Assembly: GCF_036241575.1 (NCBI RefSeq)
Contig: NZ_CP108455.1
Coordinates: forward strand, 2,432,501 to 2,496,500
DNA length: 64,000 nucleotides
Direction: 5' to 3'
From: Streptomyces sp. NBC_01267
GTDB lineage: Bacteria > Actinomycetota > Actinomycetes > Streptomycetales > Streptomycetaceae
The position numbers and the translations under genes are program-made. Positions 2,366 through 12,522 of this stretch are shown here, piece after piece; positions within the stretch are counted from its first letter, which is position 1, and each line of letters starts with the position of its first letter. The notes beneath the pieces are model-generated. The model was not told the DNA's origin and ran no database searches. It saw only the letters and a program-made list of their open reading frames with translations.

Positions 2366-3556
2366 TCAGGCGGACATGGGCCGTTGCACCCGGATCGACT
2401 GGAGCAGCCCGATCGCGATCCACACCGCGAACATCGACGAACCGCCGTACGACACGAACGGCAGCGGCAGTCCCGCCACCGGCATGATGCCGAGCGTCAT
2501 CCCGATGTTCTCGAACGCCTGGAAGGCGAACCAGGCGATGATCCCGGCCGCCACGATCGTGCCGTACAGCTCCGTCGCCCCGCGGGCGATCCGGCAGGCG
2601 CGCCACAGGACGACTCCGAGCAGGACCAGGATCAGTCCGGCGCCGAGAAAGCCGAGTTCCTCGCCCGCGACGGTGAAGACGAAGTCGGTCTGCTGCTCGG
2701 GGACGAACTGCCCGGTGGTCTGCGAGCCGTGGAAGAGCCCCGTGCCGTGCAGTCCGCCCGAACCGATCGCGATCCGGGCCTGGTTGGTGTTGTAGCCGAC
2801 GCCCGCCGGGTCCAGCGCGGGGTTGGCGAACGCGGCGAAGCGGGCGATCTGGTACTCGTCGAGCAGACCGGCCTTCCAGACCCCGATGGCGCCGACCACC
2901 CCGGTACCGAGGAGTCCGAGCACCCAGCGGTTGGAGGCGCCCGAGGCCAGCAGGACGCCGAGGATGATCATCACCAGCACCATGACCGAGCCGAGGTCCG
3001 GCATCAGCATGATGATCACGATCGGGATGGCGGCCACCCCGAGGGCCTTGACGACCGTGCGGTTGTCGGGGGTCTCCTGGTCGCCCGCGTCCACCCGGGA
3101 GGCGAGGATCATCGCCATCCCCAGAATGATCGTGATCTTGGTGAACTCGGAGGGCTGGAGGGAGAATCCGCCGCCGATGACGATCCAGGCGTGCGCGCCG
3201 TTGACGGTCTGGCCGAGCGGCGAGAGCACCGCGAGGATCAGCAGGACGGAGAGCCCGAACAGTACGGGCACCGCCCCGCGCAGGGTCCGGTGGCCCAGCC
3301 AGATCGTGCCGATCATCAGGCCGATCCCGATGCCGGTGTTCATGGCATGGCGCAGCAGGAAGTAGTACTGGTCGCCGTGGGTGAGCGAGTCACGGCCACG
3401 CGTCGCCGAGTACACCAGCAGCGAGCCGATGAACGACAGCGCGAGCGACGACATGAGCAGGGGCCAGTCCAGCCTGCGCACCACGGAGTCGCGGGCGACC
3501 AGTTTGGACCAGGAGCCCTGTTCGGGCGCGTACCGCGCTACGGAGAAACCGCCCAT
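2366..3556 (-). CDS. rodA: Rod shape-determining glycosyltransferase RodA (SEDS family)
   Basis: 396 residues with about ten hydrophobic segments. It carries the SEDS signatures: a long membrane core, the segment around HAWIVIGGGFSLQPSEFTK, and the C-terminal stretch GLPLPFVSYGGSSM. SEDS proteins polymerise lipid II and pair with a class B penicillin-binding protein. That partner, the PBP2 gene, lies just upstream with only a 4-bp gap (stop at 3561, ATG at 3556), so the two are coupled. Because it follows mreBCD-mrdA it is the elongation or spore-wall member (called sfr in S. coelicolor) rather than FtsW. Confidence 0.95.
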   Translation of the reverse strand: MGGFSVARYAPEQGSWSKLVARDSVVRRLDWPLLMSSLALSFIGSLLVYSATRGRDSLTHGDQYYFLLRHAMNTGIGIGLMIGTIWLGHRTLRGAVPVLFGLSVLLILAVLSPLGQTVNGAHAWIVIGGGFSLQPSEFTKITIILGMAMILASRVDAGDQETPDNRTVVKALGVAAIPIVIIMLMPDLGSVMVLVMIILGVLLASGASNRWVLGLLGTGVVGAIGVWKAGLLDEYQIARFAAFANPALDPAGVGYNTNQARIAIGSGGLHGTGLFHGSQTTGQFVPEQQTDFVFTVAGEELGFLGAGLILVLLGVVLWRACRIARGATELYGTIVAAGIIAWFAFQAFENIGMTLGIMPVAGLPLPFVSYGGSSMFAVWIAIGLLQSIRVQRPMSA

Positions 3557-3560
3557 GGTC

Positions 3561-5735
3561 CTAGTCCTTCCTTCCCAGCCCCGCAGCGATCTGCTGCTGG
3601 CCCGTCGGCGGCAACTTCTTCGGCGGGTTGGGGTCGTACGGCTTGACCTTCGGCGAGACGATCGAGCCGTCCTGGCTGATCTTCGGCAGGGACTTCTCGG
3701 GGTGCGGCAGCAGGGCCCTCTTCGGATCCTGGTGCCCGGAGTCGTCGAGACCGTAGAGCGCGTTGTAGATCTTGCGCACGGCGGGCCCGGATCCTCCGGA
3801 GCCCGTACCGCCCTGGGAGATCGTCATGACGATCGTGTAGTCCTTGGTGTACGTGGCGAACCACGAGGTCGTCTGCTTGCCGTAGACCTCGGCCGTACCG
3901 GTCTTGGCGTGCATCGGGATCTTGGACTGGGGCCAGCCCTGGAACCGCCAGGCGGCGGTTCCGTTGGTCGCGACGCCCGCGAGTGCGCCGTCGATGTCCT
4001 TGCGGGTCGCCTGGTCCATCGGCAGCTTGCCGTGCGACGTGGGCGCGATCTCCTGGACGGTCTTGCCGTCCGCGCTGACGATCGCCTTGCCGATGGTCGG
4101 CGTGTAGAGCGTGCCGCCGTTGGAGATCGCCGAGTAGATGTCCGCCATCTGGATCGGGGTGACGAGCGTGTCGCCCTGTCCGATCGAGTAGTTGACGGAG
4201 TCACCGGGACGCATCTGGTAGCCGTCGCGGCAGTTCTCGTACGCGATCCGCTCGACGAAGCTGCCGTCCTTCTTGCCCTGCTTGCACCACGCGGCCTTGT
4301 TCGCCGCGTAGAAGTTCTTCTTCCACTGGCGGTCCGGGACCCGGCCGTTGACCTCGTTGGGCAGGTCCACGCCGGTGGTCTTGCCGAGGCCGAACTGGTG
4401 GGCGGTCTTGTAGAACCAGTCGTTCGGCTTCTTCTTCGGGTTGATGCCCCCGTCCTTCTTCCACTCGTCGTGGGCGATCCCGTAGAAGACGGTGTCGCAG
4501 GAGACCTCCAGCGCGCGGCCGAGGGTGATGGGGCCGAAGTTCTCCGACTCGAAGTTCTGGAAGGTCTGGTTGCCGATCGAGTAGGAACTGGTGCACGGGT
4601 AGTGCCCGTTGAAGGGGTAGCCCGCGTTGACCGCGGCCGTGGTGGAGACGACCTTGAAGATGGACCCGGGGGCCGCCTGGCTCTGGATCGCCCTGTTCAG
4701 CAGGGGGAAGTCGGAGTCCTTACCGGTGAGCGAGGCGTAGTTCTTGGCGGAGATGCCACCGACCCAGTCGTTGGGGTCGTACGTCGGGTTGGACGCCATC
4801 GCGACGACGCGGCCGGTCTTGGCCTCCATGACGACGACGGATCCCGAGTCGGCCTTGTAGTTCTCGTGGGTGACCGAGTCGTACTCCTTGCGGGCCGTCT
4901 TCATGGCCTCGTCGAGCTCGCGCTCGGCGACGCCCTGGACGCGCGCGTCGATGGAGGTGACGATGTTCGACCCCGGCTGGGCCTTGTCGCTGGCGGCCTG
5001 GCCGATGACCCGGCCGAGGTTGTCCACCTCGTAGCGGGTGACTCCGGCCTTGCCGCGCAGCTCCTTGTCGTACGTACGCTCCACGCCGGAGCGACCGACC
5101 TGGTCGGACGTCAGATACGGCGACGAGGTCTTCTTGGCCTTGTTGACCTCTTCGTCGGTGACCGGCGAGAGGTAGCCGAGCACCTGCGCGGTGTTGGCGT
5201 TGGCGGGCGCGGCGTAGCGGCGTACGGCGGTGGGCTCGGCGGTGATGCCCGGGAAGTCCTCGGAGCGCTCACGGATCTGGAGCGCCTGCTGGGTGGTGGC
5301 CTCGTCGGTCACCGGGATCGGCTGGTACGGAGAGCCGTTCCAGCAGGGCTGCTTGGTCTTCGCGTCGCAGAGCCTGACCTTGTCCAGGACGTCCTGGGGC
5401 TTCATGTCCAGGACGTCGGCGAGGCGGATGAGGACGGCCTTGCCGTCGTCCTTCATCTTGGTGAGCTTGGAGCGGCTCGCGGAGACGACGAGACGGGTCT
5501 CGTTGTCGGCGAGCGGCACCCCGCGCGCATCGAGGATGGAGCCGCGCACGGCGGGCTGGACGACCTGCTGGACGTGGTTGTTCTTGGCCTCGGCCGTGTA
5601 CTCCTGGCCGTTGCGGATCTGGAGGTACCAGAGCCGGCCGCCGAGGGTGAGGAGGAGGGAGAAGACCAGGATCTGGATGACGACGAGCCGGATCTGGAGC
5701 CGCGTGGTCCGCCCGGTCTCGGGAATATTGCTCAC
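3561..5735 (-). CDS. mrdA: Penicillin-binding protein 2 (peptidoglycan D,D-transpeptidase)
   Basis: 724 residues from a GTG at 5735. An N-terminal membrane anchor (residues about 14-36) is followed by a PBP dimerisation domain and a transpeptidase domain. The catalytic S-x-x-K motif is SIFK (Ser358, Lys361), SCD appears in the expected second-motif region, and KTG starts at Lys611. It cross-links peptidoglycan outside the membrane together with RodA. The proline/lysine-rich tail is disordered. The chosen GTG overlaps the stop of the last of three mini-ORFs in the 65-bp repeats upstream. A longer frame reaching 5813 reads through that repeat and is unlikely to be the true N-terminus. Confidence 0.93.
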   Translation of the reverse strand: MSNIPETGRTTRLQIRLVVIQILVFSLLLTLGGRLWYLQIRNGQEYTAEAKNNHVQQVVQPAVRGSILDARGVPLADNETRLVVSASRSKLTKMKDDGKAVLIRLADVLDMKPQDVLDKVRLCDAKTKQPCWNGSPYQPIPVTDEATTQQALQIRERSEDFPGITAEPTAVRRYAAPANANTAQVLGYLSPVTDEEVNKAKKTSSPYLTSDQVGRSGVERTYDKELRGKAGVTRYEVDNLGRVIGQAASDKAQPGSNIVTSIDARVQGVAERELDEAMKTARKEYDSVTHENYKADSGSVVVMEAKTGRVVAMASNPTYDPNDWVGGISAKNYASLTGKDSDFPLLNRAIQSQAAPGSIFKVVSTTAAVNAGYPFNGHYPCTSSYSIGNQTFQNFESENFGPITLGRALEVSCDTVFYGIAHDEWKKDGGINPKKKPNDWFYKTAHQFGLGKTTGVDLPNEVNGRVPDRQWKKNFYAANKAAWCKQGKKDGSFVERIAYENCRDGYQMRPGDSVNYSIGQGDTLVTPIQMADIYSAISNGGTLYTPTIGKAIVSADGKTVQEIAPTSHGKLPMDQATRKDIDGALAGVATNGTAAWRFQGWPQSKIPMHAKTGTAEVYGKQTTSWFATYTKDYTIVMTISQGGTGSGGSGPAVRKIYNALYGLDDSGHQDPKRALLPHPEKSLPKISQDGSIVSPKVKPYDPNPPKKLPPTGQQQIAAGLGRKD

Positions 5736-5800
5736 AGCGATGCCCCACTGGTTGTCCTGCTGGGGGTTCGGGGGTCGTCCCCCGGAAGAAACAGCCTCAC
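5732..5800 (-). CDS. Mini-ORF 3 of the mreD-mrdA chain (22 codons)
   Basis: GTG to TGA, 22 codons (VRLFLPGDDPRTPSRTTSGASL). Its TGA overlaps the mrdA GTG start as GTGA. It lies within a 65-bp repeat unit and is identical in protein sequence to the mini-ORF before it. No family is recognised. The peptide may have no function, and the overlap may serve only for translational coupling to mrdA. Confidence 0.35.
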   Translation of the reverse strand: MRLFLPGDDPRTPSRTTSGASL

Positions 5801-5865
5801 AGCGATGCCCCACTGGTTGTCCTGCTGGGGGTTCGGGGGTCGTCCCCCGGAAGAAACAGCCTCAC
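5797..5865 (-). CDS. Mini-ORF 2 of the mreD-mrdA chain (22 codons)
   Basis: An exact copy of mini-ORF 3, lying 65 bp upstream. Its GTG overlaps the stop of mini-ORF 1 and its TGA overlaps the start of mini-ORF 3, both as GTGA. The rare pyrimidine-ending codons TTT and CTT are unlike the neighbouring genes, so selection on the peptide is doubtful. Confidence 0.35.
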   Translation of the reverse strand: MRLFLPGDDPRTPSRTTSGASL

Positions 5866-5930
5866 AGCGATGCCCCCCTCGTTGTCCTGCTGGGGGTTCG
5901 GGGGTCGTCCCCCGGGACAGACAACGTCAC
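5862..5930 (-). CDS. Mini-ORF 1 of the mreD-mrdA chain (22 codons)
   Basis: GTG at 5930 overlaps the mreD stop (CTGTGA). It encodes VTLSVPGDDPRTPSRTTRGASL and ends in a TGA that overlaps mini-ORF 2. It is the diverged copy: the first five codons and codon 18 differ from the other two. GAGGGG lies before the next GTG and could act as a ribosome site. Confidence 0.35.
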   Translation of the reverse strand: MTLSVPGDDPRTPSRTTRGASL

Positions 5931-6598
5931 AGCCGCTTGACCCCCTTGATGCGTCCGGCCTTCGCCGCGCGGGACCTGGCCGCCCGCATCCGCAGTCCGC
6001 CGCGCTGGCTGCCGATCTTCAGTCCGGTGCCGGCCGCCAGCCAGCCGGTCGCGACATCGCTGCCCACGCCGCTGCTCTTGCTGTCGGCGAGCGGGTCGTT
6101 CTCGGCTCGTCTCGCCAGGGCCATGATGAACGGGACGGTGAACGGCGCGAGCAGCAGGTCGTACACCGCGGCGCTGAACAGCAGGCCGATGAGGCCCACA
6201 TGACGGGCGGCGGTGTCGCCGACGAGGGAGCCGACGCCCGCGTACAGCAGGGTGGAGCCGACCGCCGCGGCGACCACCACGAGCATCGGGCCCATGACGG
6301 ACCTGATGCGGCCGGTCTCGGGCTTGGCGAGCCCTGCCGCGTAGCCGACGACGCACAGGACGAGCGCGTACCGCCCGGCCGCGTGGTCGGCGGGCGGGGC
6401 GAGGTCGGCGAGCAGACCCGCGCCGAAGCCGACGAGGGCGCCGCCCACGTGGCCGTAGACCAGCGCGAGAGCCACCACGGTGAGCAGCAGCAGGTCCGGT
6501 ACGGCACCAGGGAGTTGAAGTCGGGCGAGCACGCTCACCTGGATCACCAGGGCGACCACCACCAGAGTGGCCGAGAGCAGCATCCGGTTGAGACGCAT
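5927..6598 (-). CDS. mreD: Rod shape-determining protein MreD
   Basis: 223 residues, with five to six hydrophobic segments in the first 170 residues (starting MRLNRMLLSATLVVVALVIQ) and a basic tail ending in VKRL. MreD is the small integral membrane member of the MreBCD elongation complex. The ATG at 6598 lies 11 bp after the mreC stop at 6610, in the expected operon order. The charged extension of about 50 residues after the last membrane segment is longer than in the E. coli protein. The stop overlaps the first mini-ORF of the repeat region downstream. Confidence 0.92.
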   Translation of the reverse strand: MRLNRMLLSATLVVVALVIQVSVLARLQLPGAVPDLLLLTVVALALVYGHVGGALVGFGAGLLADLAPPADHAAGRYALVLCVVGYAAGLAKPETGRIRSVMGPMLVVVAAAVGSTLLYAGVGSLVGDTAARHVGLIGLLFSAAVYDLLLAPFTVPFIMALARRAENDPLADSKSSGVGSDVATGWLAAGTGLKIGSQRGGLRMRAARSRAAKAGRIKGVKRL

Positions 6599-11508: not shown

Positions 11509-12522
11509 ATGGACATAGGCATCGATCTCGGCACGGTCAACACGCTTCTCTACGTCCGCGGCCAGGGCATTGTGCTCAACGAGCCGTCCGTGGTCGCCGT
11601 CCGCGACGACGGGCGCGGGGCTCCGGCGATCGGCGACGAGGCGAAGGAGAGCCTGGGGCGCACTCCTGAGTCGGTCACCGCGATCCGTCCGCTGCGGGAC
11701 GGCGTGATCAGCGAATACGACGCCGCCGAGGAAATGATCAGGTACTTCGTGCGCAAGGCCGTCAAGGGCAGACGGCCGCGCACCCGCATGATCGTGTGCG
11801 TGCCGAGCGGCGTCACTCCGGTGGAGCGGCGGGCCATCGTGCACGCGGCGCGGCGGGCGGGGGCCCGGACCGTCCATCTGCTGGACGAGCCGATGGCGGC
11901 GGCTATGGGCGCGGGGCTGCCGGTCGACGAACCGCGCGGTTCGATGGTGGTCGACATCGGCGGCGGTACGACCGAGGTCGGGGTGATCTCCATGGGAGGG
12001 ACCGTCGCCGCCCGCTCGCTGCGCACGGCGGGCGACCGGATGAACGCCGCGATCAGCAACCACATCCGCAAGGAACACGGCCTGCTGGTCGGTGAGCGGA
12101 CCTCCGAGGAGGTCAAGCTGGCGCTCGGTTCGGCCCGGCCGGTCCCCGGCGACCAGGGGCTGGAGACCCGGACCTGCACCGTGCGGGGCCGCCAGAAGAT
12201 CAGCGGGTTCCCGACCGCCGTGACGCTGAGCGCGACCGAGGTGCGGGCGGCGCTGAACAGCCCCGTCGAGGCGATCGTCAGCACGGTGCGGGCGATGCTG
12301 GAGGAGTGCCCGCCCGAACTGGCCGCGGACGTGATGAAGCACGGGATCGTCCTGACCGGCGGCGGATCGCTGCTGCCCGCCCTGGATCTGCGGCTCGCCT
12401 CGGCGACGGGCATCGCGGTGACGGTGGCGGACGCACCGCTGGACTGTGTGGCGCTGGGCACCGGCCAGTGCGTCGAGGAGTTCGACACGGTGACGGCGAA
12501 GGTGCTGACGCCCGCCGCCTGA
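11509..12522 (+). CDS. MreB-like protein (Mbl-type paralogue)
   Basis: 337 residues starting MDIGIDLGTVNTLLYVRGQG. It keeps the actin-fold motifs: [31 protein letters not shown] and [15 protein letters not shown]. It differs from the window's MreB by lacking the N-terminal MSFIGRDM amphipathic segment, so it may bind the membrane less well. In S. coelicolor a second homologue, Mbl, supports MreB in spore-wall synthesis; equivalence is inference. No clear ribosome site precedes the ATG, so the message may be leaderless. It is transcribed against folC and valS and ends in a bidirectional terminator. Confidence 0.9.
   Translation: MDIGIDLGTVNTLLYVRGQGIVLNEPSVVAVRDDGRGAPAIGDEAKESLGRTPESVTAIRPLRDGVISEYDAAEEMIRYFVRKAVKGRRPRTRMIVCVPSGVTPVERRAIVHAARRAGARTVHLLDEPMAAAMGAGLPVDEPRGSMVVDIGGGTTEVGVISMGGTVAARSLRTAGDRMNAAISNHIRKEHGLLVGERTSEEVKLALGSARPVPGDQGLETRTCTVRGRQKISGFPTAVTLSATEVRAALNSPVEAIVSTVRAMLEECPPELAADVMKHGIVLTGGGSLLPALDLRLASATGIAVTVADAPLDCVALGTGQCVEEFDTVTAKVLTPAA

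What the first reader, a model, noticed from the sequence alone, without database searches (positions are those of the whole stretch)
5732..5930. Chain of three mini-ORFs in tandem 65-bp repeats coupling mreD to mrdA
Seen directly: three 65-bp units, two identical, fill the mreD-mrdA gap. Each unit contains a 22-codon frame whose GTG overlaps the previous stop and whose TGA overlaps the next start, so the series mreD, mini-ORF 1, 2, 3, mrdA has four CTGTGA junctions in a row. Each unit also has a GC hairpin. Inference: a GC-rich repeat entered an ancestral mreD-mrdA overlap and duplicated while preserving the junction, so ribosomes could pass by re-initiation. Because 65 equals 22 codons plus a stop minus 4, any number of units keeps the chain, which could tune PBP2 output by copy number.
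Basis: partly seen in the sequence, partly recalled or inferred. Interest (0 to 1): 0.75.

Follow-up and report, generated by a model that had tools for sequence, protein, structure and literature searches.

The report
Ribosome relay between mreD and mrdA
In Streptomyces and several relatives the gap between two cell-wall genes keeps a reading frame with no conserved peptide, which looks like a stepping stone handing ribosomes from one gene to the next; this strain has three such steps in a row.

Summary
In detail: three 65-bp units (two identical) form three 22-codon ORFs joined by four CTGTGA junctions from mreD to mrdA. It is part of something wider. Among 189 distinct Streptomyces mreD-mrdA junctions 10 overlap directly. 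Of 179 with a gap (16-314 nt), 171 (176 if five upstream start copies count) hold an ORF from mreD's stop to mrdA's start or its Shine-Dalgarno zone; random 1-2 nt indels leave this in 0.5% (shortest gaps) to 36% (longest). The mreB-mreC and ndk-mreB gaps show no frame bias. The frame is kept, the peptide is not: substitutions fall evenly over codon positions (94/88/87), with 0 stops in 2,749 relay-frame codons against 15 and 32 in the other frames. Synonymous choices at the joints favour the relay. Tandem units found in these gaps are 3n, or 3n+2 with a new junction; none 3n+1 in the scan. A same-species genome has two units. Best reading: non-peptide relay ORFs keep mrdA coupled to mreD by termination-reinitiation; MIRU repeats are the nearest precedent. 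No ribosome data were examined; long-gap evidence is weaker; tuning by copy number is untested.

The parts
5927..6598 (-). mreD (223 aa), upstream partner; ends CGG CTG TGA
   Evidence: ORF list; homologues
5941..5947 (-). Shine-Dalgarno-like AAGGGGG inside the mreD 3' end, 10 nt before the first relay GTG
   Evidence: Sequence; the Gly codon here is GGG/GGA in 167 of 173 relatives with Gly, against 425 of 2,347 Gly codons elsewhere in the mreD 3' part; duplex energy -11.5 kcal/mol in the window
5862..5930 (-). relay mini-ORF 1, 22 codons + TGA; GTG overlaps the mreD TGA, TGA overlaps the next GTG
5797..5865 (-). relay mini-ORF 2, 22 codons + TGA
5732..5800 (-). relay mini-ORF 3, 22 codons + TGA; TGA overlaps the mrdA GTG
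5731..5933 (-). tandem array, period 65, 3.1 copies (units from each GTGA: 5930-5866, 5865-5801, 5800-5736)
   Evidence: TRF; unit identities
5899..5914 (-). hairpin core CGGGGG-ACGA-CCCCCG of unit 1 (same at 5834-5849 and 5769-5784)
   Evidence: Sequence; stem of unit 1 folded alone
3561..5735 (-). mrdA (PBP2, 724 aa), downstream partner, GTG start within GTGAGC
2366..3556 (-). rodA/mrdB, next gene of the operon, short gap after mrdA

Best explanation
The gap is a ribosome relay. Ribosomes finishing mreD re-initiate at the GTG that overlaps the mreD TGA, helped by the AAGGGGG Shine-Dalgarno inside mreD. They translate a short ORF whose peptide does not matter, and end on, or at the Shine-Dalgarno of, the mrdA start, where they re-initiate. 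Selection keeps the gap translatable end to end, so that mrdA stays coupled to mreD although insertions and tandem duplications have lengthened the gap. A duplicated unit is tolerated if it is 3n long (it lengthens one relay) or 3n+2 long and carries its own NTGA junction (it adds a relay). The window is the second case, with three serial relays. Shown: the anatomy, the frame conservation, the lack of amino-acid constraint, the codon choices and the within-species copy number difference. Inferred: that ribosomes really use the relay, and that loss of the relay lowers mrdA output.
For: (a) Of 179 distinct gapped Streptomyces junctions 171 are relay-compatible as called and 176 if five rows may use an upstream start copy; by gap length 52/52 (up to 25 nt), 41/42 (26-75) and 83/85 (over 75; 78/85 without the five), against 0.5%, 5.4% and 36% after random 1-2 nt indels, where no start copy was allowed. 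(b) On one FastTree tree, 34 of 56 independent pairs differing in gap length differ by 0 mod 3 (P 2.5e-5 against 1/3), and 53 of 56 are relay-compatible on both sides (expected 29, P about 9e-13 under the random-phase null; start copies allowed); at least 103 length changes. (c) Controls in the 80 named loci: 0 mod 3 in 11 of 34 pairs (ndk-mreB) and 12 of 31 (mreB-mreC) against 15 of 22 for mreD-mrdA; 96 own-genome joints with gaps of 5-150 nt show phases 36/33/27. (d) Stops in gap interiors (gaps of 40 nt or more, last 28 nt left out): relay frame 0 of 2,749 codons, other frames 15 of 2,797 and 32 of 2,758, with several-relay and second-start rows left out; with them in, all 14 relay-frame stops are TGA, 9 as [AG]TGA and 5 as CTGA before a second mrdA-like start. 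(e) Relay-frame substitutions 94/88/87 by codon position against 34/22/132 in the mreD 3' part. (f) Synonymous choice: SD codon GGG/GGA 167/173 (18% elsewhere); last Leu codon CTG 186/188 (63% elsewhere); second mrdA Ser codon AGC 84/85 (12% elsewhere). (g) Tandem units in gaps: 12, 15, 27, 30, 48 and 54 bp (0 mod 3), 38 and 65 bp (2 mod 3); none 1 mod 3 in that scan. (h) Other genera, gapped joints, ends up to 5 nt inside mrdA allowed: with ATG or GTG on the mreD stop 16 of 16 are relay-compatible (one with an ambiguous mrdA start), with only CTG 2 of 7; 5 more have no start there and so cannot be. (i) Reporters in E. coli and Haloferax show that re-initiation needs overlaps or very short gaps (PMC10666635, abstract and passages).
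Against: No ribosome profiling or reporter data were examined. L176 breaks the frame by one base in a C run (real change or sequencing error); L059 and L123 end 5 nt inside mrdA (an 8-nt overlap). In gaps over 75 nt the test is weak: the indel null is 36%, and the two other frames also end in NTGA on the mrdA start in 43 and 24 of 85. There mrdA often has its own strong Shine-Dalgarno, and 42 of 85 gaps hold a promoter-like motif, so coupling cannot be its only source. In gaps up to 25 nt the mreD SD codon is missing in 21 of 52. The mrdA Shine-Dalgarno is not sequestered more than in shuffles. In the window, starts 3 and 4 have weaker SDs (-5.6 kcal/mol). The introduction of PMC10666635 cites other reports of re-initiation across 73 nt and up to 850 nt, which would make a relay less necessary. 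The sequence sample is ranked by similarity, not random.
Confidence: 0.8

Rival explanations
1. The gap ORF encodes a functional microprotein made together with MreD and PBP2.
For: Conserved open frame and initiation signal.
Against: No third-position excess of substitutions (94/88/87); lengths run from 6 to 98 codons in Streptomyces with serial, fused and absent versions.
Confidence: 0.04
2. Translation of the gap serves to keep Rho or RNases off the operon mRNA, not to deliver ribosomes to the mrdA start.
For: An open translated gap would do this; some gaps are long (up to 314 nt).
Against: The end point is exact in most: 120 of 179 end in NTGA on the mrdA start. The 63-337 nt mreB-mreC gap shows no phase conservation.
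Confidence: 0.1
3. The relay frame is read as a C-terminal extension of MreD by a -1 frameshift at its end.
For: The relay is in the -1 frame of mreD and an SD-like site lies upstream.
Against: No slippery heptamer is evident at AAG CGG CTG TGA (by eye); no amino-acid constraint; species with direct overlap keep the same GGG SD codon (10 of 10), where it can serve the mrdA start.
Confidence: 0.03
4. Chance: GC-rich sequence has few stops and a duplicated unit copies its own junction.
For: For one array alone this would be enough (65 is 2 mod 3; about one unit in three would be). In gaps over 75 nt other frames are often open too.
Against: Frame conservation over many length changes and none in the control gaps.
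Confidence: 0.03

Closest known systems
Mycobacterial interspersed repetitive units (MIRUs), Supply et al. 1997 (not read; as told in review PMC12548453, section 11 read, and PMC2734929, passages seen)
   Same: Units of 40-100 bp, tandem and variable in copy number between isolates; [quoted passage not shown]
   Different: MIRUs are scattered over 41 chromosomal locations in M. tuberculosis H37Rv and appear mobile; the array query finds one place here. Here most relays are not repeats, and the relay principle is kept at one junction through a genus and beyond.
Translational coupling by termination-reinitiation at 4-nt overlaps (PMC10666635, abstract and passages; PMC6728339, search listing only)
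   Same: NTGA overlaps at each joint of the window; that survey finds -4, -1 and -8 overlaps commonest, and all three kinds occur among the relays.
   Different: The coupled partners here are up to 314 nt apart and are bridged by short ORFs; counted by gene distance alone the pair would look uncoupled.
Intergenic sORF mgtQ between mgtC and mgtB of Salmonella (PMC8092293, abstract and section headings)
   Same: A short ORF in an operon gap that promotes translation of the downstream gene.
   Different: By its headings mgtQ works through stem-loops and ribosome-destabilising acidic residues; here the codons are free to change.
Leader genes that raise translation by re-initiation (Korolev et al. 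2016, PMC4833913, abstract and passages)
   Same: Non-peptide short ORFs proposed to raise initiation at the next gene by re-initiation.
   Different: That work reports a leader-to-gene distance peak of 10-11 bp for leaders that do not overlap structural genes; the passages seen do not treat relays between two operon genes or frame conservation.

Membership tests
Termination-reinitiation coupled gene chain | stop and start codons overlap (-4, -1, -8) or lie within a few nt | tested here: met
   Four GTGA joints in the window; of 179 gapped relatives 120 end in NTGA on the mrdA start, 56 end 13-22 nt upstream, 2 end in an 8-nt overlap, 1 fails
Termination-reinitiation coupled gene chain | downstream translation depends on upstream translation | not testable with these tools
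   Needs reporters or ribosome profiling
MIRU | 40-100 bp unit with an ORF joined by a -4 overlap | tested here: met
   65 bp, GTGA at both ends
MIRU | copy number varies between strains | tested here: met
   3 units in the window; 2 in L009/L089 of the same species
MIRU | dispersed at many loci, apparently mobile | tested here: not met
   One place for the array query; the 24-bp core has 4 further near-matches (1-3 mismatches) outside the array
MIRU | sequence relationship to mycobacterial MIRUs | not tested
   No mycobacterial sequence was fetched by name or compared
Functional microprotein | amino-acid sequence under purifying selection | tested here: not met
   Substitutions even over codon positions, 23 independent pairs
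REP-like palindromic element | palindrome present in many extragenic places | tested here: inconclusive
   219 of 392 Streptomyces genomes hold a match to the array query, some of them at mreD-mrdA itself; 4 near-copies of the core in this genome outside the array
SD-sequestering coupling hairpin | downstream SD paired more than expected | tested here: not met
   46 sequences (45 drawn from gaps of 35-130 nt, plus the window), median z 0.03, 23 of 46 negative

The most novel reading that the evidence does not exclude
An operon joint can be under selection for translatability alone: in Streptomyces and several related genera the mreD-mrdA gap evolves freely in sequence and length but keeps an unbroken ribosome path, and the tandem duplications found there obey an arithmetic rule (unit 3n, or 3n+2 with a new start/stop overlap). 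Surveys by gene distance would miss such relays, so coupling may reach much further than adjacent overlapping genes. In this strain three serial re-initiations may act as a copy-number-set attenuator of PBP2.
Probability: 0.7. Interest if true: 0.82.

Novelty: new variant of a known kind. Interest (0 to 1): 0.72.

Why it matters
Whether terminating ribosomes can cross untranslated gaps or need overlaps is an open argument. Here evolution repeatedly lengthened a gap and kept an ORF bridging it, which argues that at this joint overlaps matter. It gives a natural series (0, 1, 2 and 3 relays; 6-98 codons) for testing re-initiation. It also suggests that the MreD:PBP2 ratio is what the operon protects, and offers a simple scan (frame kept, peptide not kept) for unseen coupling in other operons.

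Tried and rejected
RNA lock on the mrdA Shine-Dalgarno: not supported. Relays as a general property of operon joints: the 464-kb own-genome scan found no phase bias and 1 relay among 26 joints with an overlapping start, null expectation 3.5; that simple gene caller did not list mreD-mrdA itself among its relays, so it is a coarse control. Microprotein and frameshift readings: see rivals. Dispersed mobile element: one place for the array query, few core near-matches. A first parser with loose patterns missed 107 loci, many of them long-gap, and a second used a wrong mrdA frame; both were replaced. In one search, 21 of 229 loci did not parse: 20 are hairpin hits without an mreD-mrdA pair (19 without any hit, L105 with mreD only), and L217 lacked an mreD hit. 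Rows with several relays in one gap, and rows with a second GTGACCAAC start, were left out of the 0/2,749 stop count; one search gives the count with them in. Five rows (L047, L049, L060, L135, L147) count as relay-compatible only through that upstream start. The tandem-repeat scan looked at offsets of 12-129 nt, took one best repeat per gap and left out ambiguous rows. The sample is not random: the 229 loci are 80 named ones by mreD similarity (the best of 410 confirmed), 29, 30, 30 returned and 60 more fetched from the rows that one search listed (its row list was cut; 381 of 392 genomes matched). Of the 51 non-Streptomyces genomes, 39 were read.
Full report
WHAT IS THERE. The window lies in a Streptomyces chromosome (G000, 8.07 Mb; a locus with 100% mreD identity is from Streptomyces sp. 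A 4/2). On the minus strand mreB, mreC, mreD, mrdA and rodA follow each other. Between the mreD TGA (5929-5927) and the mrdA GTG (5735-5733) lie three 65-bp units. Each holds 22 codons from a GTG that overlaps the previous TGA to a TGA that overlaps the next GTG. Units 2 and 3 are identical; unit 1 matches them at 58 of 65 bases. The array query finds one place in the genome.

COPY NUMBER. Two loci of the same species, L009 and L089 (identical in the stretch compared, possibly one genome), hold two units with all junctions intact. Their first unit equals the window's first unit (65/65), and their second differs at 2 positions from the window's twins. The step from two to three is therefore recent, or the units have been homogenised. 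L089 comes from a 140-contig assembly, so a collapsed repeat cannot be fully excluded.

BEYOND THE REPEAT. The nearest loci outside the species on the tree, L119 and L193, have a single 65-bp gap ORF with GTGA at both ends and without the hairpin core; the next ones (L226, L224, L216) overlap directly. Across 189 distinct Streptomyces junctions (208 of 229 loci parsed) 10 overlap directly. Among the 179 with a gap, 176 hold an ORF, or a chain of ORFs joined by [AG]TGA, that begins on the mreD stop and ends in NTGA on the mrdA start (120) or with its stop 13-22 nt before it (56; 35 of them at 21 nt, in the long-gap clade at the TGA of a TGAGAGGGGGAGG-like box). Five of the 176 count only if an upstream copy of the mrdA start is taken as the end point. 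The other three are L059 and L123, which end 5 nt inside mrdA, and L176, which differs from its tree neighbour L172 in length by one base in a C run.

IS IT CHANCE? On a tree of the flanking coding sequences, 34 of 56 independent pairs with different gap length differ by a multiple of three (P 2.5e-5), and 53 of 56 are relay-compatible on both sides (expected 29; P about 9e-13, start copies allowed); the three failing pairs hold L176, L059 and L123. At least 103 length changes are needed. In the 80 named loci the ndk-mreB and mreB-mreC gaps show no such thing: 0 mod 3 in 11/34 and 12/31 pairs, against 15/22 at mreD-mrdA (lengths). In 464 kb of the own genome, 96 same-strand joints with gaps of 5-150 nt have phases 36/33/27. 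The rule thus looks special to this joint. Against this: in gaps over 75 nt the two other frames are often open too and end in NTGA on the mrdA start in 43 and 24 of 85; the strong signal comes from the 94 shorter gaps, where the two other frames end so in 0 and 3.

FRAME KEPT, PEPTIDE NOT. In gap interiors (gaps of 40 nt or more, last 28 nt left out) the relay frame has 0 stops in 2,749 codons, the other frames 15 in 2,797 and 32 in 2,758; several-relay rows and second-start rows were left out. With these in, 14 relay-frame stops appear, all TGA: 9 as [AG]TGA and 5 as CTGA before a second mrdA-like start. Yet relay-frame substitutions between 23 independent pairs fall 94/88/87 on the three codon positions, while the mreD 3' part of such pairs shows 34/22/132. 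The sequence seems to be under selection to be readable but not to encode anything in particular.

THE JOINTS. Synonymous choices fit a start on the mreD stop. The fifth-last mreD codon, where glycine, is GGG or GGA in 167 of 173, giving AAGGGGG or AAGGGAG 10 nt before the relay GTG, while elsewhere in the mreD 3' part GGC makes up 1,795 of 2,347. All 10 direct-overlap rows have GGG there, where the same site can serve mrdA itself. The last codon is CTG in 186 of 188 Leu cases (63% elsewhere), and the second mrdA codon is AGC in 84 of 85 Ser cases (12% elsewhere). These are counts over related sequences, not independent events. In gaps up to 25 nt, 21 of 52 lack the SD codon (AGC 16, GGC 5), the AGC form being that of the 16-nt clade.

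TANDEM REPEATS IN THE GAP. A scan found arrays with units of 12, 15, 27, 30, 48 and 54 bp (0 mod 3; the 54-bp one in three loci of one genus, L270, L282 and L285, in L282 only partly) and of 38 and 65 bp (2 mod 3, each carrying a fresh NTGA junction); none was 1 mod 3.

OTHER GENERA. Forty regions from 39 of the 51 non-Streptomyces genomes of the family were read; 39 parsed. Eight join directly and three are unclear. Of 28 gapped joints, 16 have an ATG or GTG on the mreD stop and 16 of these are relay-compatible: nine end in NTGA on the mrdA start, three in TAA 5 nt inside mrdA, four 2-3 nt before it (one of the four, L297, with an ambiguous mrdA start). With the limit used for Streptomyces (no stop beyond the overlap) this is 13 of 16. 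Seven have only a CTG there, and 2 of them are compatible. Five have none because mreD ends in TAG, and cannot be compatible by definition.

LONG-GAP CLADE. Of 85 gaps over 75 nt, 42 contain GSAAC-N15-19-CGTY (shuffles: mean 0.9, maximum 4), with 35 matches at 18 nt spacing and 7 at 15 (the pattern was chosen after looking at the gaps). This looks like an ECF sigma-factor promoter for mrdA-rodA inside the relay. In S. coelicolor sigma-E acts on mreBCD from a promoter upstream of mreB (PMC6767563, passages); the passages seen say nothing on this gap. It could explain why the gap grew.

HOW IT MOST LIKELY WORKS. Ribosomes ending mreD restart at the overlapping GTG, traverse the short ORF and restart at mrdA. 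Published reporters in E. coli and Haloferax lose most or all re-initiation over gaps of about 20-38 nt (PMC10666635, abstract and passages), so without the relay many of these gaps should uncouple mrdA; the same paper's introduction cites reports of re-initiation over longer gaps. In the window, starts 3 and 4 have weaker Shine-Dalgarno energies (-5.6 kcal/mol) than starts 1 and 2 (-11.5, -11.3), so each further unit may lower PBP2; that is inference.

KNOWN OR NEW. The parts are known: overlap coupling, and repeats with coupled ORFs (MIRUs; review PMC12548453, section 11). The membership test for MIRU fails on dispersal. Searches for mreD with translational coupling (2 papers), for Streptomyces with mreD, pbp2 and operon (10 papers; passages of one read) and for Streptomyces with reinitiation terms (12 of 45 papers listed) showed no description of this relay in their listings; papers of most subscription journals are not held.

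Noticed in passing
relatives L018, L021, L023, L025, L039, L040 and others (mreD-mrdA gaps over 75 nt): Promoter-like GGAACG-N-CGTTCATCA (ECF sigma type, mostly 18 nt spacing) inside the gap, 42 of 85 against at most 4 in shuffles; candidate internal promoter for mrdA-rodA.
   Followed up: partly
L047, L049, L060, L135, L147: A second mrdA-like start (GTGACCAAC) lies upstream of the called ATG start; read by hand in L047, L049 and L135 it opens a 19-codon ORF that ends in ATGA on the ATG, as if the mrdA start had been duplicated and turned into a relay (sequences).
   Followed up: partly
G197, G128, G058, G283, G304, G089, L096, L099 (other loci): The same GC hairpin core occurs elsewhere in Streptomyces genomes, often in tandem with periods of about 66-114 bp; some copies lie 14-21 nt after an ORF end (L099, L103, L105, L106).
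   Followed up: partly
L186: A 38-bp tandem duplication that includes the mreD 3' end itself makes a 13-codon plus 8-codon relay chain.
   Followed up: partly
L182: What look like two units whose inner GTGA is out of the relay frame, so one 49-codon relay crosses both.
   Followed up: no
window 11509-12522, + strand: A second MreB-like gene on the opposite strand near the mre operon (ORF translation, by eye).
   Followed up: no
G420 C2:6101514-6103598 and C2:1829035-1831119: Two strong mrdA homologues in one genome, one with an internal TGA.
   Followed up: no
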